Shown here in pieces: positions 1 through 9,217 of a stretch of 64,000 nucleotides of DNA. The DNA is from Nitrospirales bacterium (GTDB lineage Bacteria > Nitrospirota > Nitrospiria > Nitrospirales > UBA8639). How positions within the stretch are numbered: the first letter of the stretch is position 1; each line of letters starts with the position of its first letter. The notes under the pieces are model-generated. The model was not told the origin of the DNA, ran no database searches, and saw only the letters and a program-made list of their open reading frames with translations. The DNA lies in contig JAJDVY010000017.1 of the NCBI GenBank assembly GCA_022825885.1, positions 1-64,000 of the forward strand. The letters are read 5' to 3'. Made by a program: the position numbers and the translations under genes.

Positions 1-159
1 ATCGCCAATAAGGATACGGTCATCATGAAGGCCATCTCCCCGCCCTCGATGGACGAATTTTCCACCCTGATAGCAAACGCCAGAAAGCAGGCGAGAAAGG
101 CCGGCTTGAAGCGGGCCGAGGTCAAGTCCGTGATCTCGGAAGTACGCTCCGGGAAATGA
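1..159 (+). CDS. AbrB/MazE-type antitoxin, C-terminal part (5' end outside window)
   Basis: Frame 1 is open from the first base to a TGA at 157-159 and gives 53 residues. The visible part, with IMKAISPPSMDEF followed by a basic helix rich in K and R, resembles the C-terminal tail of SpoVT/AbrB-fold antitoxins, where a short beta-barrel DNA-binding domain is followed by a tail that covers the toxin. The DNA-binding domain itself would lie upstream and is not visible, so the family call rests only on the tail. A 4-base ATGA overlap at its stop opens a second reading frame that ends after 18 codons. Confidence 0.5.
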   Translation: MANKDTVIMKAISPPSMDEFSTLIANARKQARKAGLKRAEVKSVISEVRSGK

Positions 160-212
160 GCAAGTACCCTCTCAAGAATTTCTTGGTTCCAGTGTCCAGC
201 CTCTTTGTGTAG
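156..212 (+). pseudogene. Possible truncated partner gene overlapping the antitoxin stop
   Basis: The antitoxin stop is part of an ATGA overlap, the usual layout for a coupled antitoxin-toxin pair. The frame opened by this ATG encodes MSKYPLKNFLVPVSSLF and a few more residues and stops at 210-212, inside the 3' end of the opposite-strand gene. It may be the stump of a toxin gene cut off by the neighbouring cassette. Nothing in the 18 residues identifies a family, and chance is a real alternative. Confidence 0.2.
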
Positions 213-660
213 CCAACCTGGCAAGAGCTATCCTCAACAGTCTAAACGCTTTCTTTTTCTTGCTTTCAGATCCAAGAACTTTCGGCTCGACAACTATTCG
301 CGCATGGGCTTCATTCTTCTTAGGAATCGGATCCGCAGTTACATCAACGGCATGCTTGACTGGGCTCCCCTTATCGTCAAGGGTCCTAACATCACCAATC
401 TGTCGTAGCTCCTGGGTGATAAGGGTAACAATTCCATTATCTGCACTTATCCTAGATTGTTCCGGGTCAAAATCTTTTAATTTTGCGCGGTCGACGGAAG
501 GTTCTTTTTCTCTATCCTTGAAGGCCTGAGGCAGGAAAGTCACATCTCCGGTTGTAAGATCGTAGGAGTATTCGTCATAAACTAAATTTCCCCGAACATT
601 TCGGTAGAGTTGCTCTTCATCAGAGACGTAATCTTGAGTCACTCGCTCAACCAATCCCAC
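172..660 (-). CDS. Hypothetical protein, third gene of the TIGR04255-like cassette
   Basis: A 162-residue soluble protein with no signal peptide or membrane segment; I do not recognise its family. It is charged, with a lysine cluster (SKKKKAF) before a basic C-terminal helix. The listed start is a GTG at 658-660. A GTG at 640-642 would give a 4-base GTGA overlap with the preceding gene and is equally plausible, costing only six residues. It sits last in a minus-strand run of three tightly packed genes, so a shared function with the TIGR04255-like protein is inferred from position only. Confidence 0.6.
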   Translation of the reverse strand: MGLVERVTQDYVSDEEQLYRNVRGNLVYDEYSYDLTTGDVTFLPQAFKDREKEPSVDRAKLKDFDPEQSRISADNGIVTLITQELRQIGDVRTLDDKGSPVKHAVDVTADPIPKKNEAHARIVVEPKVLGSESKKKKAFRLLRIALARLATQRGWTLEPRNS

Positions 661-1130
661 AAGTTCAGGAAATCCTTTTCTTTCAGAATACCTAGGTGCA
701 TTTCATGCTCGATGTTTACACCCCAAACTTTAATATACTCGGTCTCTTCTTCGCCTATTTCTATATGAAGTTCATGGTCTCCATGGTTCCACTGCATTGT
801 GATATGGCCATCTTCATCGCTGGAAACAAACGGGGGATTCCAAAGTCGTCCACTATTTACGACTGAATATAAAAAATACTCCAGCGTAGTATGAGCTTGA
901 CTCAAAACAAGTGGGCTGGGCTTCTTTGATCCTTTTCCGTCCCAATTATCTTCACGTTCCGTTATCTTATGAAGTTTTTCTTTAAATGTTTCCAACAAGG
1001 ACGGGTAACAGTCTTGTTGCCATCTTCTATAAAGCTGTTCCTGCTGTGAAAGCTTGTGTTCTTCTGCCTTTGTTGAGTCTTCTTCACTGAGGATGACACT
1101 CTGATTCGAGAATGGAAACTCATCATCCAT
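639..1130 (-). CDS. Hypothetical protein, second gene of the TIGR04255-like cassette
   Basis: About 163 residues, acidic, without signal peptide or membrane segment. The conserved-looking core contains NWDGKGSKKPS, then an alternation of strands (PPFVSSDEDGHITMQW, HELHIEI) and ends LWDWLSE. This pattern is seen in small uncharacterised proteins often encoded beside TIGR04255 proteins, but I cannot name a function. The open frame extends to 1265, which would overlap the upstream gene by 113 bases. The ATG at 1128-1130 lies just after the upstream stop with GAGG in front, so I chose it. Confidence 0.6.
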   Translation of the reverse strand: MDDEFPFSNQSVILSEEDSTKAEEHKLSQQEQLYRRWQQDCYPSLLETFKEKLHKITEREDNWDGKGSKKPSPLVLSQAHTTLEYFLYSVVNSGRLWNPPFVSSDEDGHITMQWNHGDHELHIEIGEEETEYIKVWGVNIEHEMHLGILKEKDFLNLWDWLSE

Positions 1131-1152
1131 GTCCTCAGTGCCGCTGGCTCCC

Positions 1153-1959
1153 TCAGTTTTTTTCTGAGATTGGTCCCATGACTTCTCGTAGGGTATCGGT
1201 GATGCTCCGCTGGAAGATGTTTCGAATGTTTCCCTGATTGAAGGTTCTGCTTGTGATAATGGCATCTTCGACCTTCCGTTTTTTTTCAGTGGTATAGCAG
1301 TCTATATCAATTATATATGACTCTTCATCATTCAGGTTATAAATTCCATATTTTCCCGAGATTTCTCCATAAATGTAGCGTACGTTGACCGTGGAAGTTC
1401 CATCTTCTACGACAAGGAGTTTTTCAAATCCTTTTACTTTTATCTCATCTTCCGTAGATTCCTGAAGTTCCGGCGCTACTTCTAGAGGCACGAATTCCCG
1501 AATATCTCTATCCGTCACCAATATATTTTTGTTCGCCAAATTGCGATATCTGAGGCCGATACGGTTAAAGTAGTTGGGCTCATATTCCTGCCAAAAAACT
1601 TCCAACGTAGTTCTCAGGCGTTCCTCAAATTCAGTGTAATTTCTGTAGCCCGTACATTGCAGAGCAACAAAATCTTTCGTCAGGGTAATTTGCCACTTCC
1701 CATCTTCGGAAAAAAACATATATTCGTCATCACCTAATCCAGATACAGCCTTACGTATTTGCTCAGTGATAGGGATGGCAGCAGGAAAATCCAGTTTTTT
1801 TATTTTGGTTTCCGGGAACCCTTTTTTTCGTATTTGATCCTGAAAGTTAACGGGTTGCTCGTTTGAAATCTTCATGATCCGAGGGAAGCGAGCCTGAAAA
1901 ATAACCTCGAAGAGGATGTTGTTTTGATATTCAGTCCTTTGTTGTTTCGGAAGCTTCAT
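1153..1959 (-). CDS. TIGR04255-like family protein
   Basis: About 268 residues. The N-terminus (NNILFEVIFQARFP followed by a PVNFQDQIRKKGFP-like stretch) matches my memory of the sporadically distributed TIGR04255 family, whose members have 'LxEVIxQLRFP' then 'FQexir..FP'. The middle contains FWQEYEPNYFNRIGLRYRN, also typical. The biochemical role of the family is not known; its patchy distribution suggests mobile accessory genes. The frame continues to a TTG at 2032-2034, but the ATG at 1957-1959 gives the family's usual N-terminus. It heads a three-gene minus-strand set. Confidence 0.65.
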   Translation of the reverse strand: MKLPKQQRTEYQNNILFEVIFQARFPRIMKISNEQPVNFQDQIRKKGFPETKIKKLDFPAAIPITEQIRKAVSGLGDDEYMFFSEDGKWQITLTKDFVALQCTGYRNYTEFEERLRTTLEVFWQEYEPNYFNRIGLRYRNLANKNILVTDRDIREFVPLEVAPELQESTEDEIKVKGFEKLLVVEDGTSTVNVRYIYGEISGKYGIYNLNDEESYIIDIDCYTTEKKRKVEDAIITSRTFNQGNIRNIFQRSITDTLREVMGPISEKN

Positions 1960-2144
1960 AACTAAGAGCAGTCTATTCTTTAGAACAACTGAAATTTCAA
2001 GAACACCTGAAGAGAAATCAAAGCACGCACCCAATCCCCCTTTTTTTCAGGAGAGACTATTGAAGGTACCATGAAAACGACGGAGTGAAAATTGGTAAGA
2101 AAGCTAACCGTATTTGCGGCCATCTTTGCACAATCGTGACCGCG

Positions 2145-2888
2145 TCACATGAATTTCATGAACTTTTCCTTGGCTTCGTCCATGAGTTCGGCGGAGATGG
2201 TGGTCGCGCCGCGCTCCTGGGCCAACCGTTCGATTTCCTTGCGGGCCATGGGTTGAATGAAGTCCGGGATGTTGCTCAGCCGTTGCTCGGCTTCGGGCGA
2301 CCAGTTCATGCCATTTGACGAATTCTTGGAATCGTCCATGACTTGCAACGTGACGGTCGAATAGCCGTTCTTGCGCGCATATGTTTCCACGCTACCCTTG
2401 ACCATCGGCTGCACGAACGACGGCAGCTTGTCCAACCGTTCCTGCGCGTCGGGGCTCCATTGCAGCGCGGCCGGTTGGGTGCCGGCGGAGGACTCGCCGC
2501 TCGTCAACCCCATCTGCGAAACCATCGCGGAAAACGGACACCCGCCGGACTCGCCCTCTTTCGCAGGGGCACCGGCTGCGGGGGCCGCAGTCTGCCCGGC
2601 GTTGATTTTTTCGTTCAGATAGGCCGCCATGGACCCGGACGGCGCCGGAGCGCCGGCGTCTTCTTTGAGTGTGCCGCGCGTCATTTCCAATGGAGAAGGG
2701 TCCACCGTCCGGCCGCCAAGCTGCACACCCAGGGAACTGACCATTTGGGTTTCACCCGGATTCGTCACCATGGAAACCTTCGCCTCGCAGGCGGGGCAGG
2801 CGAAAAACACCCCGAGCGATCCTTCGGCGGGTTTTTCCACTTTTTCAAAACTCATATAGGTTTCACAGTTCAAGCAGACGAATTTCAT
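2145..2888 (-). CDS. Zinc-ribbon protein with two PCP reductase-type (PF08369-like) domains
   Basis: A 247-residue protein in three parts. Residues 1-45 hold two CxxC pairs (CLNC and CPAC) typical of a zinc ribbon. A low-complexity Ala/Gly/Pro linker follows. The C-terminal half carries two copies of a module starting WSPDAQERLDKLPSFVQPM and WSPEAEQRLSNIPDFIQPM, each continuing with a long helix and a small-residue turn. This module is the small helical domain found at the C-terminus of the light-independent protochlorophyllide reductase B subunit. There is no chlorophyll gene nearby, so a general metal or protein-binding role is more likely. It lies 70 bases downstream of the Mrp gene on the same strand, suggesting work in Fe-S metabolism. 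Confidence 0.75.
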   Translation of the reverse strand: MKFVCLNCETYMSFEKVEKPAEGSLGVFFACPACEAKVSMVTNPGETQMVSSLGVQLGGRTVDPSPLEMTRGTLKEDAGAPAPSGSMAAYLNEKINAGQTAAPAAGAPAKEGESGGCPFSAMVSQMGLTSGESSAGTQPAALQWSPDAQERLDKLPSFVQPMVKGSVETYARKNGYSTVTLQVMDDSKNSSNGMNWSPEAEQRLSNIPDFIQPMARKEIERLAQERGATTISAELMDEAKEKFMKFM

Positions 2889-2958
2889 AACGGCCTCACG
2901 CGGGAGAGTTAAAGGTAAAAGAAGGAAACCTCATCGTTCAATGGGCGGACACCGCCCC

Positions 2959-3882
2959 CTACAGCTTTTCGGCCAGGACTTTTTTGTAATCCAGCATCGA
3001 CTGGATCCGGCCGACAATATCCGTATAGCGCCGATTCGTGGGGTATTCCCCGTCCAGCAACGGGGTCCCCTTATCGAACGTCTTCGCAAAGTTCCGGTCA
3101 AATGGAATACGGCCCAACAACGGCAGGTTGAGGGCTTCACACATGCCTTCGGTGTTGCCCTCAAACAGTTCATTCTCGACGCCGCACGACGGGCACCGGT
3201 ATTGGCCCATGTTTTCCACGACCCCCAACACAGTAATCCCCAGTTCCGTGGCATAGCCGATCGACTTCTGGACCACGTTCGAGGCGACTTCCGACGGCGT
3301 GGTGACCACTACCGCGCCGGCCAGATCCGGCAGGAATCCGGCGATGACCGGCGGCTTATCCGCTGCGGCGCCCGGGGGAAGATCGGCCAACAGATAATCC
3401 AAATCGCCCCAAAGAATATCCGCCAGGAACTCGCGGATGACGTTCATTTCCATGAGCCCCAGCCACACGGGGCTCAAATCCATCGGGCCTTTCCACCGGA
3501 CGGGAGCCGTCTCATTGAGCAGAAAATCCATGGACGCCACTTTGATGCCATAAGGCCCTTCGGGCGGCCGCGCCCCATCCGGCGTGACCTCAAGCCCCTT
3601 GCCCAAAATCCCCATCATGCGGGGAACGCAAGGCCCGTTCAGGTCCACGTCGATGATCCCGACCTTGTGGCCTTGCCGTGCCAGGGCCAAGGCCAAATTG
3701 ACCGTGGTCATGCTTTTCCCGACTCCGCCCTTGCCACTCATCACCACGATCTTGTGCTTGATCCCCGACATACGGTCCTGCACCTGCCGGGTCTGCTGGG
3801 TAATCTGCTGGACGACCTTGGCGTCGTCGGTGTATTGCAATTTACCCAGAATGCTTTTCAGGTCTTTTTCCATAGAGTTCAT
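2959..3882 (-). CDS. mrp: Mrp/NBP35-family ATP-binding iron-sulfur cluster carrier
   Basis: A P-loop NTPase of about 307 residues from the chosen start. It has the deviant Walker A MSGKGGVGKS, switch I IIDVDLNGP, a DLPPG motif for Walker B, and a C-terminal CPSC pair that in this family bridges a transferable Fe4S4 cluster in the dimer. It would carry clusters to apo-proteins in the cytoplasm. The frame extends to 3918, but a TTGACT-17-TACGTT promoter-like pair covers that stretch and no Shine-Dalgarno sequence is seen there. The ATGs at 3880-3882 and 3871-3873 are better starts. The PCP_red-type gene follows. Confidence 0.85.
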   Translation of the reverse strand: MNSMEKDLKSILGKLQYTDDAKVVQQITQQTRQVQDRMSGIKHKIVVMSGKGGVGKSMTTVNLALALARQGHKVGIIDVDLNGPCVPRMMGILGKGLEVTPDGARPPEGPYGIKVASMDFLLNETAPVRWKGPMDLSPVWLGLMEMNVIREFLADILWGDLDYLLADLPPGAAADKPPVIAGFLPDLAGAVVVTTPSEVASNVVQKSIGYATELGITVLGVVENMGQYRCPSCGVENELFEGNTEGMCEALNLPLLGRIPFDRNFAKTFDKGTPLLDGEYPTNRRYTDIVGRIQSMLDYKKVLAEKL

Positions 3883-3908
3883 CTGCGAATGTTTCAGCCT
3901 AAACGGAA

Positions 3909-3937
3909 AACGTAGCATAGGGGTTTTGACCAGTCAA
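3909..3937 (-). promoter_or_regulatory. Candidate sigma70 promoter for the mrp gene
   Basis: On the minus strand TTGACT (complement of 3932-3937) is followed after exactly 17 bases by TACGTT (complement of 3909-3914). The -35 is close to consensus; the -10 matches at only three positions. Transcription would begin near 3902, upstream of the ATG at 3882. Seen only by eye, so weak. Confidence 0.3.
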
Positions 3938-4999
3938 TCAATGGGCGGGGGGAATGCCGGGGACGTGCGACAAGTCACCAATGACACGTGTCGTGGGCTT
4001 AGGCGGTGCAGGCAGCGCGGGGTTAAGAAGGGGAGAGAACGAGAAACTGGGAACCGGGTGAAGTCGGATCGTGATCGCGACGGCGTGCATGCGTTCCGCG
4101 CCGTAGACTTCCACGGCAGTCAGGTTGCCGGCCGAGCGGGGAAAAGGGTGAAAGACCCGGTACACGTGACTGTCCCCGAATAGCAGGATGACCGGTTTTC
4201 GAAACAACTTCGCCTGCCTGACGAGGGTTTCGGCGAAGCCCTTGAACCCGGAGGCAGGGTCAAAGGTTTCCTGTTGCGGATCGAATCCGTCCCCGAACAT
4301 GTCGGCGTGCATGGCAACCACCACAGCCTCGGCGCCCGCAGCCTCGGCCCTGTCGAAGGAGTCCGCGAGCCACGCCCGGTCCGCTTCGTCACGGGCGAGG
4401 AATTCCTCAGTGACACCGGACCCCTCGACGGCATCGAAGTTGTTGTTGGAGCCGACCACGTGCGCGGTCACGAACCACACGCCTCCCCAACTGAACCGGC
4501 TGTTCTCCACAAACGGCCCGAAACCCGGCATGAGGTCCGCCTGGCGCTCAAGGCGGATCGGCTGTCCGCCGAGACTCTCATCCGTCGGGAAATAATGTGC
4601 GCGAATGAAGGCCAGCCGGTCGAGCGGATCAAACCCTCCGGCCAGCAAGCGATGACAATCGGTCCATTCGTTGTCTCCCGGGGTGTAGACAAGGGCCGAC
4701 GCAAAGCGGTTCATGAAATCCCGCCGATCGAGCAACTCTTGGTCGGAGCAGGGTTCCAGGCCTGATTTGGTGTCGCCGAGGTGGATGACGAAGACGGGAG
4801 CCCGGCGGTTGATCTCCGCGATCAACGCCCGGAACTTGTCGTAATCCTGCTCACGAGAGCCATAAGGCATATCGCCCAGGACCACGAACGTGAACTCCGC
4901 GGCCGTCGCTGTGGTCCCCGTTGACAGGACGAAGCAAAGAACGACGGATGCCATTGCTAGCAGGGAACAACGATCGTTGTTCCCTACACATCTCATCAC
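3938..4999 (-). CDS. Secreted calcineurin-like metallophosphoesterase
   Basis: 353 residues beginning with a signal peptide (hydrophobic stretch around residues 12-30 ending in an Ala-rich cleavage region, TTATAAEF). The metal-binding motifs of the calcineurin-like fold appear in order: VVLGDMPYG, VIHLGDTKSG, YTPGDNEWTD, VVVAMHADMF and LLFGDSHVYR. The last one has GDSH where the family normally has GHxH. The substrate cannot be told; export to the periplasm or outside is expected. The GTG start at 4997-4999 overlaps the upstream stop by 4 bases (GTGA), with an ATG directly after it, so the two genes are translationally coupled. Confidence 0.8.
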   Translation of the reverse strand: MMRCVGNNDRCSLLAMASVVLCFVLSTGTTATAAEFTFVVLGDMPYGSREQDYDKFRALIAEINRRAPVFVIHLGDTKSGLEPCSDQELLDRRDFMNRFASALVYTPGDNEWTDCHRLLAGGFDPLDRLAFIRAHYFPTDESLGGQPIRLERQADLMPGFGPFVENSRFSWGGVWFVTAHVVGSNNNFDAVEGSGVTEEFLARDEADRAWLADSFDRAEAAGAEAVVVAMHADMFGDGFDPQQETFDPASGFKGFAETLVRQAKLFRKPVILLFGDSHVYRVFHPFPRSAGNLTAVEVYGAERMHAVAITIRLHPVPSFSFSPLLNPALPAPPKPTTRVIGDLSHVPGIPPAH

Positions 5000-5292
5000 C
5001 GGCGGCCCACCTCAAGCAACAACGCGCCCAATTGCTTGACCCGCTCGAAATAGTCCAGGGGTTCCTCGGTCAACTCCGGCAGTACGGTCTCCAAATCTGA
5101 AAGGCAATCTTCGAGGATCGCCACCCGTTGCGGATCAAGCTCATGCTCTTCGAAGAAATAGGCGGCGCACCCGCTGACGACTGTGTCCAGGGTCATGAGT
5201 TCGCCTTCACGGGAGCCCACCTCGACCGGCCATTCCGCCGCCTGATGGATATCCCACAACCGGGTCAGATCCTGGTTGTTCCTTTGAGTCAT
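4996..5292 (-). CDS. Small acidic hypothetical protein
   Basis: About 98 residues from the ATG at 5290-5292 (MTQRNNQDLTRLW), which has GAG nine bases upstream. It is acidic and helical, with no signal peptide, no membrane segment and no known motif. It lies between a small membrane protein gene and the secreted phosphoesterase gene, overlapping the latter by four bases, so all three appear to be one transcript. I do not recognise the family. Confidence 0.55.
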   Translation of the reverse strand: MTQRNNQDLTRLWDIHQAAEWPVEVGSREGELMTLDTVVSGCAAYFFEEHELDPQRVAILEDCLSDLETVLPELTEEPLDYFERVKQLGALLLEVGRR

Positions 5293-5302
5293 GGCGTCCA
5301 TC

Positions 5303-5689
5303 TCAGCCGTGGAGAATAAGGTCTGCGGCCAAGCCCACTGCCAAGGCCAGATCAAGCGTCCCGCCAACCCGGAACAACCACGGCGGCCACTTGTTGAGCC
5401 ATCCCAGCACCTGTTCCCGCCACAACGCCGGCGCCCCCAGCAACAGACAGGCCTTGATTGTAGCCAGCGCGCCGCACAACGCCCAAAGCCAAAACGCCGT
5501 GAGACCCGTGGTGCCGATCATCAACAGCAACCCGACCAGCAAGATCATCTGCCCGAACCAGAAGCGCGGCCAGGGATCCAGGAGAATCCGCCTGGCCCAG
5601 ACAAGCGCCACGGCGGGCACAATGGCGACCATCAACCCGGCCAATCCCCAAGCCAGGCCCGTCAATCCCATGAAGAGATCTGCCATCAA
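5303..5689 (-). CDS. Small integral membrane protein
   Basis: 128 residues with four likely membrane helices: residues about 5-28, 45-62, 63-80 and a weaker C-terminal one (FRVGGTLDLALAVGLAADLIL). Two tryptophan-rich loops (RILLDPWPRFWFGQ and WLNKWPPWLFR) sit at the membrane face. There are no catalytic-looking residues and no family I recognise. It is the first of three minus-strand genes ending with the secreted phosphoesterase. Confidence 0.6.
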   Translation of the reverse strand: MMADLFMGLTGLAWGLAGLMVAIVPAVALVWARRILLDPWPRFWFGQMILLVGLLLMIGTTGLTAFWLWALCGALATIKACLLLGAPALWREQVLGWLNKWPPWLFRVGGTLDLALAVGLAADLILHG

Positions 5690-5877
5690 CCCGTCAACGC
5701 CTTACTTTGACATCGCTGTGCTTGACCCGTCTGTTCTGTATCAGGATGGTATCAGAGAAATCGGCAAAGTAAGCCTGGCATTCACCGGGTTTCAGTGTCA
5801 AGCGAGGCGGTTGCCTCGACCACGTCCTGCTGCGTATGCTGCTTGGCGATTATCGAAAACCCTCGACCGAGCACGCC

Positions 5878-6375
5878 ATGACGGAACAAGCCCAAGAGAC
5901 CGCGAAAGCCCTCGTCCAACTCATCCCCCCGTCCGTCGCCCCCGATTTCCTCGAAGACTACGGACTGACTCTCACCACCCAACAGGCGCAAGCCGTCACC
6001 AAAGAGCTGTTGGCCCTGAGCCTGTATTGGATCACCTGCGCCGTGCGCGTGAGTATTCCCGAACCCGTTTGCAGCCGGATGCACCAAGCCATCCATGAAC
6101 GGGTCCGCGAGAAATGGCGTAGCCGGTTCGGGCTGGTTCACGTTCCCATCGATGAGTTTTATGCCGCGATGGAACACAAGCACCGGACATGGGAGGACAT
6201 CGCACAACAGGGAGGGGAACCCATTGCCGTCTTGAGTGACGCGGCCCGGGAATTGGAAGATGACCGCGTCATTGCCTCCCACGACCGGCAAAAACTCCTG
6301 GCGGTCCTGCTCGACCTGGTCCCGATCGACGAGATAGGAGACCTCGTCGCCGAACTGGAGGAAACCCTGAGATAG
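5878..6375 (+). CDS. Hypothetical helical cytoplasmic protein
   Basis: About 165 residues from the ATG at 5878 (MTEQAQETAKALVQLIPPS); the frame also allows an ATG at 5836. It is mostly helical and acidic, with no signal peptide, no membrane segment and no catalytic motif I can recognise. It stands alone, divergent from the membrane-protein operon on its left and convergent with gpmA on its right. Confidence 0.55.
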   Translation: MTEQAQETAKALVQLIPPSVAPDFLEDYGLTLTTQQAQAVTKELLALSLYWITCAVRVSIPEPVCSRMHQAIHERVREKWRSRFGLVHVPIDEFYAAMEHKHRTWEDIAQQGGEPIAVLSDAARELEDDRVIASHDRQKLLAVLLDLVPIDEIGDLVAELEETLR

Positions 6376-6456
6376 GGATCGTGGCGCGCCTGAAGAAGGG
6401 AACAGCCGCATAAGATAGGGCTGTTACGAAGACGGATAAGGTCCGTCCAACAAGAA

Positions 6457-7062
6457 TTACAAATACCGGTGGGACACGGTTTGGCCTTGGCCGTCCAGTT
6501 CATAGAGTAACGGGGCGCCGGTGGGGATGTTCAGGTCAAGGACTTCTTCTCGGGAGAGTTGGTCGAGGTGCATGACGAGGGCGCGCAGGCTGTTGCCATG
6601 GGCCACGACCAGGAGCGTCTCGCCATTTGCCAGGCGCGGCCATAGGTGGTCCCGGTAATAGGGCAGCACGCGCTCGGCCGTGTCTTGTAAGCTCTCTCCG
6701 CCGGGTGGCCGCACGTCGTAACTTCTCCTCCACAATTTCACTTGGGCTTCTCCGTATTGTTTTGCGGTTTCGGCCTTGTTAAGCCCTTGCAACTCGCCGT
6801 ACATGCGTTCGTTCAACGCCTGGTTCCGTTCGACCGGCAGCCCGGATTGGCCGATGGCGTGCAACACGATCTCCAAGGTTTTGATGGCCCGCGTCAACAC
6901 CGAGGTAAAGGCATGATCAAACCGGAAGGACCGGAGCTTCTCTCCTGCTTCCCGCGCTTCCTGCTCACCCCTGGGGCTGAGGGGAACGTCCACCCATCCG
7001 GTAAACCGGTTCTCGAGATTCCATTGTGATTCACCGTGGCGAATCAAGACGACGTGTTTCAT
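6457..7062 (-). CDS. gpmA: 2,3-bisphosphoglycerate-dependent phosphoglycerate mutase
   Basis: 201 residues, shorter than the usual 230-250. It interconverts 3- and 2-phosphoglycerate in glycolysis and gluconeogenesis. The catalytic RHGESQWN motif is at residues 8-15, followed by NRFTGWVDVPLS, the LNERMYGELQG region with the acid/base glutamate, RRSYDVRPPGGES, and the second histidine in VAHGNSLRALV. The C-terminal IPTGAPLLYEL is intact, so the short length reflects trimmed loops rather than truncation. The gene is alone on the minus strand, its start just left of an opposite-strand hypothetical. Confidence 0.92.
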   Translation of the reverse strand: MKHVVLIRHGESQWNLENRFTGWVDVPLSPRGEQEAREAGEKLRSFRFDHAFTSVLTRAIKTLEIVLHAIGQSGLPVERNQALNERMYGELQGLNKAETAKQYGEAQVKLWRRSYDVRPPGGESLQDTAERVLPYYRDHLWPRLANGETLLVVAHGNSLRALVMHLDQLSREEVLDLNIPTGAPLLYELDGQGQTVSHRYL

Positions 7063-7245
7063 ACCTCCTCCTCACGTACGAACCGGGCGAACACCCATTC
7101 ACTCCGCTCAGGGCAGGCTCCGGTTCGCCCCTACAGGCGACCCGTTTCGTTCCTCTTGCTTTGCCCGGCCGCACCTCGTACCATGCCAAGCACGTTCCGC
7201 TCCCCGTCAGATCCCCGACGGGATCACGCCTCCGAGACAACCGTC

Positions 7246-8082
7246 ATGCCGCCTATGACTCAACCCGACCGACCTCATCTTGACGCCCGGTGGTGGGTCG
7301 CGCTAGGGCAACGGCTCCACATCCGTGAGAAGGTCGAGCAATTCTTTGACAACGCGACCACGCCCAACAACGTACTGGACCGCGTGGCGGAAGTCGATGG
7401 GGATATGCCCTATATCCTGTTTGTCCTGGTGCGGCATTGGATCCCCATTGTGTTGCCCCCGCCGGGTCGTGAACGCATTTCCAAACACGATCCGGATTAC
7501 TGGCTGGAATCGGCACAGATCCTGAATGCCGCCGTGACGCGCCTGCGTGAATTAAAACCCCTGATCGACCTGCTGACCACGCCCAATCCCCTGGCCGGCC
7601 AAACGGCGCCTTCGGCTTCCCCGATCGTAGAAGTCGAGTTGGCCAACATGCTGCAGGACATCGCCAAGGTCGCGGGCAGTTACGGCGGGGCGGATTATAC
7701 GTCGATCATCAAAGACTTCGATCCCATTCCCCTGCGACAAACGCAACCCTTTAAACACAACAAGAAACACAGTGCCGAGCTGTGGGTCGTGTTTTTGCTC
7801 CGCGAACATTTTCGCACCCTGAACTTGGGAAAGGACCGCTATTGGCCGCTGCTCACCGACGTGATTACGGCTGCCGGCATTCGTCAACCCAACGATCATC
7901 CGTTTGCCCCGGGCGAACTCAAATCCTGGTGGACGAAGAACTGGCCCCGGACTTACACCCTGTTAAAGGAGAAAAGCGACGACGGCCTGCCCACCGTGCA
8001 TACGGCCTACCAAAGCGACTATGAGTGGTTCCAATCATGGTTCGGGTGGGAACTGTCGCAACCGGCCGGTCCCGGCCGCTGA
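7246..8082 (+). CDS. Hypothetical protein with long helical core
   Basis: About 278 residues from the ATG at 7246; the frame is open from 7036, but that region overlaps gpmA and reads like non-coding sequence, and another ATG lies at 7255. The protein is tryptophan-rich (DARWWVALGQRL, LKSWWTKNWPRTY, YEWFQSWFGWEL) and lacks membrane segments or a signal peptide. I do not recognise a family and see no catalytic motif. It converges with the DUF2628-like membrane gene. Confidence 0.55.
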   Translation: MPPMTQPDRPHLDARWWVALGQRLHIREKVEQFFDNATTPNNVLDRVAEVDGDMPYILFVLVRHWIPIVLPPPGRERISKHDPDYWLESAQILNAAVTRLRELKPLIDLLTTPNPLAGQTAPSASPIVEVELANMLQDIAKVAGSYGGADYTSIIKDFDPIPLRQTQPFKHNKKHSAELWVVFLLREHFRTLNLGKDRYWPLLTDVITAAGIRQPNDHPFAPGELKSWWTKNWPRTYTLLKEKSDDGLPTVHTAYQSDYEWFQSWFGWELSQPAGPGR

Positions 8083-8103
8083 TTCCCGGCTCGTTCACGG
8101 CCG

Positions 8104-8796
8104 TCACAGGAACATCCGGCGGCCCTCCGTCTCCTCCCCGCCCGGCTCCCCGTCAGGCAAGGGAAACTCCTCTTCGAGCGGCGCTTCGCCGAGCACGGCA
8201 AAGAAGACGCCGATCTTCAATAAGAATGACGCCGCCACCAACCAGAACACGTAGGATTGAACGCCCCCTTCATCCATGAGCTGCCGCATGCGGGTCGCGT
8301 GGTCCAGGCCGGCCCTGGCTTTCGCCTTCAGCAACAGGTCTCTCAGGTGCCAGTAATACACGTAATTGGCGCTCGCGCTGGCGATCATCGACCACACGAT
8401 CGGCACCGTGATGTCGCTCGTGATAAACACGGACACAATGGGGCCGATAAAATACACAAACGCAAACAGGTACATTTTGCGATACAGAAACCAGAGAAAG
8501 GGCTCGACCAAAAACGGTGCCCAGTTCCACGTGAGCGAAAAGCGGGGGCCTTGTGCGGTGTGAAACCGTTGAAACGCGCGTTGATAATAGTCCCACGCGG
8601 GTTTCCACGACCAACCCCCCCTCAACGTGAACTGGATGCACCGCCCGGGACCGATCAAGGTCCGCCAATACTGCTCCTCCTGATCCGTCTCGCTTTCAGC
8701 TTCAGCCGCCGCTTCCGCGGGAAACTCCTTGCCGCAACGCAGGCAAAATTGCGCATCATCGGGATTCTGTTGTTCGCAGGACTCGCAGGCTTTCAT
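8104..8796 (-). CDS. Zinc-ribbon plus DUF2628-like membrane protein
   Basis: 230 residues. The N-terminus carries a zinc ribbon with CESC and CLRC pairs (residues 4-22). After an acidic linker comes a region typical of DUF2628 proteins: aromatic-rich FSLTWNWAPFLVEPFLWFLYRKMY, then hydrophobic helices (LFAFVYFIGPIVSVFI, IVWSMIASASANYVYYW, YVFWLVAASFLLKIGVFF). It should sit in the inner membrane with the ribbon in the cytoplasm. Function is unknown for the family. It is a single gene. Confidence 0.7.
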   Translation of the reverse strand: MKACESCEQQNPDDAQFCLRCGKEFPAEAAAEAESETDQEEQYWRTLIGPGRCIQFTLRGGWSWKPAWDYYQRAFQRFHTAQGPRFSLTWNWAPFLVEPFLWFLYRKMYLFAFVYFIGPIVSVFITSDITVPIVWSMIASASANYVYYWHLRDLLLKAKARAGLDHATRMRQLMDEGGVQSYVFWLVAASFLLKIGVFFAVLGEAPLEEEFPLPDGEPGGEETEGRRMFL

Positions 8797-8864
8797 GGTT
8801 GGGGTTATACCATGCGACCATTCCCGAAGGCCACCGGGCGAGACAGGAAGGATCTCTTCGTTCC

Positions 8865-8896
8865 GTCATCCCCGACTCGATCGGGGATCCAGCGTC
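8865..8896. repeat. Dispersed palindromic repeat, family A, copy 1
   Basis: The unit reads TCATCCCCGACTCGATCGGG then GATCCAGCGTC; its core TCCCCGA...TCGGGGA is an inverted repeat around CTCGA. Near-identical units occur at 11250-11282 (opposite orientation) and 37155-37190, and a variant at 13049-13112. Confidence 0.75.
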
Positions 8897-8929
8897 GTTT
8901 TGTCTTTCGTTGATGAGGAGAAAAACCAT

Positions 8930-8963
8930 GGATTCTCGATTAAAGATATCGAGAATGACAGCT
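8930..8963. repeat. Dispersed repeat, family A variant
   Basis: GGATTCTCGATTAAAG followed by ATATCGAGAATGACAG. CTCGAT and ATCGAG form a short hairpin. It matches the variant at 13049-13112, which also has a GATTAAA loop and ends GATGACAG. Confidence 0.55.
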
Positions 8964-9217
8964 TAGGGGAAGATAGGCGGGGCTTGTCTGGAACAAACAG
9001 GGTGTTTATGCTTCATCATGTTCGCATATCGCCAAGGTTACTTGGCGGAAGGCATCTATCGAGCACTCTAACACATACGCCGCAAACAGGTCCGCAAACG
9101 CATGGCTGGTAGCGTAATTTTTGAAGACAGAAACACGGAAAAACAGATCCTTGACCGGACAGACAAGGTGCGGCTCTTGCCTCTGATCTAGCCCCATTTG
9201 TGGTAGGGGAGTGAGGA

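What the first reader, a model, noticed from the sequence alone, without database searches (positions are those of the whole stretch)
172..1959. Three-gene cassette of TIGR04255-like plus two unknown proteins next to a cut antitoxin operon
The genes are packed on the minus strand with overlaps and AT-rich composition. The opposite-strand antitoxin gene ends 13 bases away, and its coupled ATGA start opens into the cassette and dies after 18 codons. This looks like insertion of the cassette into a toxin gene. TIGR04255 proteins have no known role, and the two partners may complete an undescribed system.
Basis: partly seen in the sequence, partly recalled or inferred. Interest (0 to 1): 0.5.

Follow-up and report, generated by a model that had tools for sequence, protein, structure and literature searches.

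The report
Three-gene toxin-antitoxin-like cassette replacing a toxin
A three-gene cassette sits where related bacteria keep a toxin gene, and relatives of its first gene (a family of unknown function) lead operons that end in a range of unrelated toxin genes, so it probably belongs to a little-described three-part class of bacterial self-poisoning (toxin-antitoxin) systems.

Summary
In detail: three overlapping minus-strand genes (172-1959) abut an AbrB/MazE-type antitoxin whose ATGA-coupled toxin start dies after 18 codons. Three same-genus genomes carry the antitoxin plus an intact PIN toxin here; in the window shared sequence stops at the ATGA and no PIN remnant was found, so the toxin was replaced, not split. 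The antitoxin's missing 5' part is a contig break. The trio recurs in the same order under purifying selection, and the maf gap it occupies is a hot spot whose other cargo is mostly ordinary TA operons. More important, TIGR04255 (gene 1) heads operons whose genes 2 and 3 vary: gene 3 is a PIN domain (3 cases), zeta toxin (2), HEPN (4; one clearly, one barely over Pfam's cut-off), HicA-like (weak), DUF7689, or unnamed families including the window's. I read TIGR04255 as the constant accessory part of modular tripartite TA-like systems (gene 2 antitoxin, gene 3 toxin). The window's gene 2, and relatives of its gene 3, resemble PADLOC's phage-defence candidate PDC-M32. A relative's predicted fold gave TBP/phosphagen-kinase-like matches and no SecB row. 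Toxicity is untested; searches found no paper naming TIGR04255.

The parts
1..159 (+). 3' part (codons 43-94) of an AbrB/MazE-type antitoxin gene; 5' part lies at the end of contig C7
   Evidence: the homologue in G003 matches Pfam MazE_antitoxin E 3.5e-8
156..212 (+). 18-codon stub opened by the former toxin's coupled start codon; the PIN coding sequence is missing from codon 2
   Evidence: intact PIN in G003, G009, G013
160..165 (.). junction: sequence shared with the antitoxin-toxin relatives ends at 159, homology to the G015 cassette starts at 166
166..2020 (.). cassette, 72.7% identical to the copy in G015 at the same site, 42% GC
172..660 (-). gene 3 (C family, 'HAxI'): inferred toxin/effector; no Pfam family
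   Evidence: 3 of 15 family members match PADLOC PDC-M32B, P0003 itself does not
639..1265 (-). gene 2 (B family, 'NWDG' domain): inferred antitoxin
   Evidence: C-terminal part matches PADLOC PDC-M32A E 1.9e-4, 10 of 13 family members match
1153..1959 (-). gene 1: TIGR04255 family protein, inferred accessory component
   Evidence: NCBIfam TIGR04255 E 3.9e-29
2145..2888 (-). right flank: conserved zinc-ribbon/PCP-reductase-like gene (name recalled), fixed edge of the hot spot
2959..3918 (-). right flank: ApbC/Mrp-like ATPase (name recalled)

Best explanation
The cassette is a tripartite toxin-antitoxin-like module. Gene 3 (172-660) is the toxin/effector, gene 2 (639-1265) its antitoxin, and gene 1 (TIGR04255, 1153-1959) an accessory protein, made first, that binds the antitoxin and conditions its activity (adaptor or chaperone-like). 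TIGR04255 is the constant part; antitoxin-toxin pairs are exchanged behind it. The module lives in a chromosomal hot spot (maf | zinc-ribbon gene) that otherwise mostly carries classical TA operons, and here it displaced the PIN toxin of an AbrB-PIN pair. Shown by sequence: trio order and recurrence, site sharing, toxin replacement, and known toxin domains at gene 3 in other TIGR04255 operons. Inferred: which gene is toxin and which antitoxin in the window, and the biochemical role of TIGR04255.
For: (1) 83 TIGR04255 loci were examined, of which 78 hold an ORF of 180 aa or more. Behind these 78: window-type B and/or C 37 (both 30, C only 4, B only 3), 'SQ-x-CD' 11 (three similarity groups of 8, 2 and 1 that I joined by eye), DUF7689 4, HicA-like 4, PIN 3, HEPN 3, zeta 1, nothing recognised 13, contig end 2. 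(2) Pfam on gene 3: PIN 4.1e-12, 1.9e-6, 1.6e-16 and HEPN 1.8e-4 (just over cut-off); zeta toxin 5.6e-10 and, on a Vibrio plasmid outside the 78, 3.1e-12; HEPN on a Thermus plasmid, also outside the 78, 4.2e-6. (3) PIN at that distance is expected 0.06-0.10 times among 76 modules; 3 seen. (4) Tight coupling: gene 1-2 overlap in 58 of 68, exactly 4 nt in 34; gene 2-3 within 30 nt in 57 of 59 (genes 2 and 3 were picked by proximity, so this is descriptive). (5) Modularity: gene 2 partners of a PIN (L173) and of an SQ-x-CD protein (L182) share residues 1-77 (30%, E 8e-5) although their gene 3s fall in different similarity groups. (6) Of 13 occupied hot-spot gaps, 9 hold classical TA genes (one of them, G005, with a broken HigB), 2 the trio, 2 other genes. 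(7) In 59 genomes (own and relatives), 16 of 18 B matches and 17 of 22 C matches lie just behind a TIGR04255 match (the models were built from such neighbours). (8) B and C families match PADLOC candidate defence proteins PDC-M32A and PDC-M32B.
Against: No toxicity or neutralisation data. The window's gene 3 has no known toxin domain. 13 of 78 TIGR04255 genes have no recognised partner, including five from one genus where it appears solo (L038, L039, L041, L053, L054). HicA assignments stay below Pfam's cut-off (or without a match, L206), as do two of the three HEPN proteins among the 78; the HEPN proteins lack the RX4HXY motif (motif recalled; read by eye), and the L234 gene-3 protein, HEPN-like by eye, has no Pfam match. 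No SecB row appeared among the fold matches. A search for a shared gene-2 N-terminal motif gave no clear signal over shuffles. The window's gene 3 protein does not match PDC-M32B. B and C also occur without TIGR04255 (2 of 18 and 5 of 22 matches).
Confidence: 0.58

Rival explanations
1. TIGR04255 is the operon's DNA-binding autoregulator (as omega is for epsilon-zeta), needed because window-type gene 2 carries no obvious DNA-binding domain.
For: First gene of the operon; Foldseek places TATA-binding protein among the best matches of the predicted fold; the window's gene 2 has no HTH match.
Against: Other TIGR04255 operons have gene 2 proteins with HTH-like regions (weak, below cut-off: L178, L165, L197), which would make a second regulator redundant; the TBP matches have low TM-scores (0.21-0.43) and 6-9% identity.
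Confidence: 0.17
2. It is primarily an anti-phage defence system in which TIGR04255 is a sensor and genes 2-3 are effector parts, not a TA pair.
For: Genes 2 and 3 belong to families that resemble PADLOC phage-defence candidate PDC-M32 A and B; copies lie on IMG/VR viral contigs (L224, L225), next to an hsdM-like gene (by eye) in G033, and a TIGR04255 gene lies next to a multiubiquitin/ThiF set on a Rhizobium plasmid.
Against: PDC-M32 is itself only a candidate; PIN, zeta and HEPN proteins at gene 3 argue for a TA logic, though TA systems can also serve defence.
Confidence: 0.15
3. Independent genes brought together by a recombination-prone TA/defence hot spot; TIGR04255 has no functional link with its neighbours.
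For: The maf gap is such a hot spot, with 85%-identical 218-bp direct repeats around the G015 copy and scattered fragments of flanking genes.
Against: Same order and mostly overlapping starts in other families and phyla and on plasmids, at unrelated sites; most B and C matches directly follow TIGR04255.
Confidence: 0.07

Closest known systems
TAC (toxin-antitoxin-chaperone) systems with SecB-like chaperones (HigBA, MqsRA, HicAB; PMC5105189 and PMC6377645, passages seen)
   Same: One shared third protein accompanies unrelated toxin-antitoxin families; the antitoxins carry extra, variable extensions.
   Different: Third gene is TIGR04255, placed first, with no SecB row among its fold matches; toxins here are PIN, HEPN, zeta and unnamed families; chaperone dependence not shown.
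PDC-M32 (PADLOC phage-defence candidate, proteins A and B; named in PMC12429752, passages seen)
   Same: Gene 2 matches the C-terminal part of PDC-M32A; some gene 3 relatives match PDC-M32B.
   Different: The N-terminal ~250 positions of PDC-M32A are not matched by gene 2 and a separate TIGR04255 gene stands in front; the window's gene 3 does not match PDC-M32B.
omega-epsilon-zeta tripartite TA (recalled)
   Same: Three genes including zeta toxin and an accessory gene.
   Different: omega is a small RHH repressor (recalled); TIGR04255 is ~250 aa with another predicted fold and also precedes non-zeta toxins.
AbrB/MazE-PIN and HigBA/VapBC operons at the same hot spot
   Same: Occupy the same chromosomal gap in close relatives.
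   Different: Two-gene systems without TIGR04255.

Membership tests
TIGR04255 (NCBIfam sporadTIGR04255) | score above the curated cut-off over the whole model | tested here: met
   102.2 bits vs 30, residues 11-260 on model 2-250 of 252
TAC (SecB-type tripartite TA) | third gene in an operon with a toxin-antitoxin pair | tested here: met
   For TIGR04255 relatives with PIN, zeta, HEPN at gene 3; for the window by position only
TAC (SecB-type tripartite TA) | SecB-fold chaperone | tested here: inconclusive
   Model of a relative (L229, pLDDT 83.7) gave AdoMetDC, TBP and phosphagen-kinase rows; SecB not among the rows shown
TAC (SecB-type tripartite TA) | antitoxin extension that makes it depend on the third protein | tested here: inconclusive
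   Shared N-terminus of gene 2 between a PIN and an SQ-x-CD module, but no clear common motif over 69 N-termini
TAC (SecB-type tripartite TA) | toxin inhibition requires the third protein | not testable with these tools
   needs experiment
PDC-M32 (PADLOC) | PDC-M32A protein, full length (375 positions) | tested here: not met
   P0002 matches positions 255-350 only (E 1.9e-4)
PDC-M32 (PADLOC) | PDC-M32B protein | tested here: not met
   P0003: 0 families at E<=1; 3 of 15 relatives match, best 1.6e-4
Type II toxin-antitoxin | recognised toxin domain in the cassette itself | tested here: not met
   P0002, P0003: no Pfam/NCBIfam family over cut-off
Type II toxin-antitoxin | toxicity of one gene, neutralisation by its neighbour | not testable with these tools
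   needs experiment

The most novel reading that the evidence does not exclude
TIGR04255 defines a new class of modular tripartite toxin-antitoxin systems. One non-SecB accessory protein of TBP/phosphagen-kinase-like architecture is the constant first gene, and unrelated antitoxin-toxin pairs (PIN, HEPN, zeta, HicA-like, PDC-M32-like, SQ-x-CD, DUF7689) are plugged in behind it. A stretch of the antitoxin binds TIGR04255 and the rest fits the toxin.
Probability: 0.45. Interest if true: 0.75.

Novelty: new variant of a known kind. Interest (0 to 1): 0.6.

Why it matters
TIGR04255 is a curated family without a known function. It matched 20 of 59 genomes of the own and close lineages and 56 of 295 genomes drawn from this phylum, and occurs on plasmids of Proteobacteria, Cyanobacteria and Thermus. 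Placing it at the head of operons that end in known toxins gives it a testable role and predicts several new toxin families (the HAxI, SQ-x-CD and DUF7689 proteins). It would be a non-SecB parallel to toxin-antitoxin-chaperone systems and would suggest that control of a toxin by a third protein has arisen more than once.

Tried and rejected
Rejected: (a) that the cassette truncated the antitoxin; the truncation is a contig end. (b) A simple insertion into the PIN gene; no remnant. (c) SecB-like fold of TIGR04255: not seen among the fold matches shown, which does not exclude it. (d) Phosphagen-kinase/McsB-like enzyme: Z up to 9.4 (188 aligned, 4.1 A) is only slightly above the usual background of 7-8 stated by the tool, and the CP[ST]NxG signature (recalled) is in 0 of 78 sequences. 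(e) A common short motif in gene 2 N-termini: EM over 69 sequences scored 222 with 25 starts, but 201.1 with 8 starts against 190 (sd 5, max 201.2) for 12 shuffles with 8 starts, so no clear signal. (f) Relatives among solved structures by sequence, profiles of genes 1, 2 and 3: none at a meaningful E-value. (g) tblastn of the L186 gene 2, whose C-terminus looks VapB-like, against plasmids: no match, so the VapB resemblance stays recalled. (h) First structure job on P0001 alone: pLDDT 36, useless. (i) TIGR04255 in viral contigs: 8 scans, 4 with relatives (only repeated the loci of 73), 4 with none; phage records: 1 match for P0001, none for the L225 protein. Rows dropped: five TIGR04255 loci (L042, L058, L059, L060, L217) hold only ORFs under 180 aa and were left out of the 78; L002, L003 and L005-L032 duplicate fetched regions. 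G006, G008 and G011 were not in the hot-spot count (G006's contig ends in the gap, no maf was found near the gene in the G011 stretch, G008 was not fetched). The PIN/HEPN/zeta/HicA/SQ-x-CD/DUF7689 labels in the tally come from models built from the same loci; Pfam was run only on the representatives named. HigBA was checked by Pfam in G012 only and AbrB-PIN in G003 only; the others rest on DNA similarity and tblastn.

Full report
WHERE IT IS. The window is the first 64 kb of contig C18 of a 2.38-Mb, 50-contig genome. The finding sits at the contig's edge. The three ORFs exist as described. Gene 1 is TIGR04255 (E 3.9e-29); genes 2 and 3 have no Pfam or NCBIfam family over a cut-off.

THE CUT ANTITOXIN. 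Codons 43-94 of an AbrB/MazE-type antitoxin occupy 1-159. Its first 34 codons, with maf and dusB upstream (names recalled), end exactly at the end of contig C7, so the 'cut' is an assembly gap of about 25 bases on the relatives' sequence. In G003, G009 and G013 (same genus) the same antitoxin overlaps a PIN gene by ATGA, with the 134-aa PIN protein covered over 133-134 residues (Pfam PIN_3 E 1.2e-21 and MazE 3.5e-8 in G003). Aligned at the junction, relatives and window agree to ...CTCCGGGAAATGA and then diverge. Homology to the G015 cassette starts at window 166. No PIN remnant is detectable in window 1-9000 or at the C7 end (best E 0.8), and the relatives' PIN gene has no DNA match in the genome. 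The toxin was therefore replaced, not split. Other PIN genes exist in this genome (22 matches); one, with a VapB-like partner, lies just upstream of dusB on C7 but is not detectably similar to the lost one (tblastn E 1.7 or worse).

A HOT SPOT. I compared the gap between maf and the zinc-ribbon gene in 19 genomes. The cargo is: the trio in 2 (G000, G015); AbrB-PIN in 3 (G003, G009, G013); HigBA in 4 (G001, G010, G012 and, with a broken HigB, G005); two HigBA-like pairs in 1 (G019); VapBC in 1 (G016); other genes in 2 (G020, G002); nearly nothing (23-199 bp) in 6 (G004, G007, G014, G017, G018, G021). Pfam confirmed HigB (1.6e-19, G012), one Gp49/HTH pair over cut-off and one HTH plus YafQ/ParE-like pair with the toxin below cut-off (G019), and PIN with PSK_trans_fac (G016). 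In G005 the PIN gene is cut to about its first 24-30 codons, a second independent case of toxin loss at this antitoxin. The G015 trio is bracketed by 218-bp direct repeats at 85% identity; fragments of maf and of the zinc-ribbon gene lie scattered in four gaps (G001, G013; G005, G019).

THE TRIO RECURS. Those in G030 and G033 sit at other sites, beside a recR-like and an hsdM-like gene (by eye). The own genome has a second, diverged trio on contig C29. In 59 genomes (own included), TIGR04255 occurs in 20; 16 of 18 B-family matches and 17 of 22 C-family matches lie directly behind a TIGR04255 match (the models were built from such neighbours). Invariant residues in the alignments used are W108, D109, P145, G153 in gene 2 (13 sequences) and A46, H119, I122 in gene 3 (15 sequences).

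GENE 1 IS CONSTANT, GENES 2 AND 3 ARE EXCHANGED. I took 83 TIGR04255 loci from the relatives and from 295 genomes of the phylum (56 positive). Of these, 78 hold an ORF of 180 aa or more. What follows them: B and/or C 37, 'SQ-x-CD' 11 (groups of 8, 2 and 1, joined by eye; separate by blastp), DUF7689 4, HicA-like 4, PIN 3, HEPN 3, zeta 1, nothing recognised 13, contig end 2. Pfam on representatives: PIN 4.1e-12, 1.9e-6, 1.6e-16; HEPN 1.8e-4 (22.1 bits against a cut-off of 22), two more HEPN below cut-off; DUF7689 6e-43; zeta 5.6e-10; HicA 0.016-0.055, below cut-off, in three and no match in the fourth. Outside this set: a Vibrio plasmid has TIGR04255 + 215 aa + zeta toxin (3.1e-12), a Thermus plasmid TIGR04255 + unknown + HEPN (4.2e-6), a Chroococcidiopsis plasmid TIGR04255 + annotated transcriptional regulator + SQ-x-CD-like (by eye), a Rhizobium plasmid TIGR04255 + two hypothetical genes beside multiubiquitin/ThiF/DUF6527 genes, and IMG/VR viral contigs L224, L225, L229, L231, L232 TIGR04255 + B-like + C-like (by eye). 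Against a background of 108 PIN matches in 28.8 Mb (10 genomes), 0.06-0.10 PIN genes would be expected at this position in 76 modules; 3 were seen (P about 3e-5 to 1.5e-4). Genes 1 and 2 overlap in 58 of 68 modules, by exactly 4 nt in 34; gene 2-3 gaps are 30 nt or less in 57 of 59 (candidates were chosen by proximity, so these are descriptive).

MODULARITY INSIDE GENE 2. The gene 2 of a PIN module (L173) and that of an SQ-x-CD module (L182) align over residues 1-77 (30%, E 8e-5), while their gene 3s fall in different similarity groups; gene 2 of a zeta module (L197) shares an HTH-like stretch with an SQ-x-CD-like module (L178, E 3e-5). This fits an antitoxin with one part for TIGR04255 and another for its toxin, but a common N-terminal motif over all types was not found.

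FOLD OF TIGR04255. The window protein alone gave no usable model (pLDDT 36). A relative (L229) with nine others, the window's protein among them, gave pLDDT 83.7 and pTM 0.82: two halves of beta strands followed by a long helix. Foldseek's best PDB rows are AdoMetDC/prozyme (6.7e-5) and TATA-binding proteins, at low TM-score; VIA-align's are phosphagen kinases (Z 9.4, 188 aligned, 4.1 A), with Mediator subunits (8.6, 8.4) and McsB (8.3). These Z values are only slightly above the usual background, so I read this as an arrangement and not a family. No SecB row was shown.

MECHANISM. I commit to a tripartite TA-like module: gene 3 toxin, gene 2 antitoxin, TIGR04255 an accessory adaptor or chaperone-like protein made first. 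Shown: gene content, order, site, replacement of a toxin, and known toxin domains at gene 3 in sister operons. Inferred: roles in this cassette. The parallel is TAC, where SecB-like chaperones go with HigA, MqsA and HicB antitoxins (PMC5105189 passages; PMC6377645 passages). It works like a TAC by architecture, but the defining SecB fold was not found, so I do not file it as one. Gene 2 and the gene 3 family are related to PADLOC's PDC-M32A (C-terminal part; 10 of 13 members, best 1.2e-11) and PDC-M32B (3 of 15, best 1.6e-4; not the window's own protein), a two-protein phage-defence candidate named in PMC12429752 (passages). The N-terminal part of PDC-M32A is found in G009 in a 308-aa protein overlapping a 139-aa protein that looks like a PIN toxin (PIN by eye), which suggests that such accessory domains are themselves interchangeable. 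B and C also occur behind other first genes (L140, L156).

LITERATURE. Full-text searches for TIGR04255 returned no paper. A search for tripartite TA with PIN, HEPN and zeta terms listed 8 papers, of which I saw passages of one (PMC2701414, found by other terms). Most subscription papers and preprints are not held.

VERDICT. Confirmed observation; interpretation partly right (replacement, not insertion; contig break, not a cut antitoxin). The wider result, TIGR04255 as the constant gene of exchangeable toxin operons, is a new variant of a known kind (tripartite TA) and directly testable.

Noticed in passing
L035 (G015) and window gap maf|2145: 218-bp direct repeats (85% identical) flank the trio in G015; maf 3' fragments (G001, G013) and zinc-ribbon-gene 3' fragments (G005, G019) are scattered in the same gap, suggesting a recurrent recombination site.
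   Followed up: partly
L103 (G005) 4360-4443: PIN gene truncated to about 24-30 codons beside a HigA gene with a broken HigB: a second independent loss of the toxin at this antitoxin.
   Followed up: partly
L102 (own contig C7) 655-1298: A VapB-like/PIN pair lies directly upstream of dusB-maf in the own genome, on the other side of the orphan antitoxin; its PIN is not detectably similar to the lost one.
   Followed up: partly
L061 (own contig C29) 3316-5259: Second, diverged TIGR04255 trio in the own genome, with PIN matches also on the same contig.
   Followed up: partly
L140 (own contig C14) 940-2153: B-family gene followed by a degraded C-like frame (by eye), preceded by a different 112-aa first gene instead of TIGR04255; a PIN-like ORF lies upstream.
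   Followed up: no
L156 (G002:C2) 90-1914: B-like and C genes led by an unrelated 217-aa first gene with ATGA overlap, followed by what looks by eye like a type I restriction HsdR gene.
   Followed up: no
L235 (G009:C2) 836-2178: 308-aa protein matching the N-terminal 220 positions of PDC-M32A, overlapping a PIN-like gene (PIN by eye): another candidate accessory-plus-toxin pair.
   Followed up: partly
window 1153-1265: 113-nt out-of-frame overlap of genes 1 and 2, of similar size (104-125 nt) in G015, G030, G033, Rhizobium and viral contig L222; whether gene 2 really starts that early is open.
   Followed up: no
window 1180-1332: Residues 210-260 of TIGR04255 weakly match the C-terminus of PADLOC RT_UG17 (E 0.0025).
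   Followed up: no
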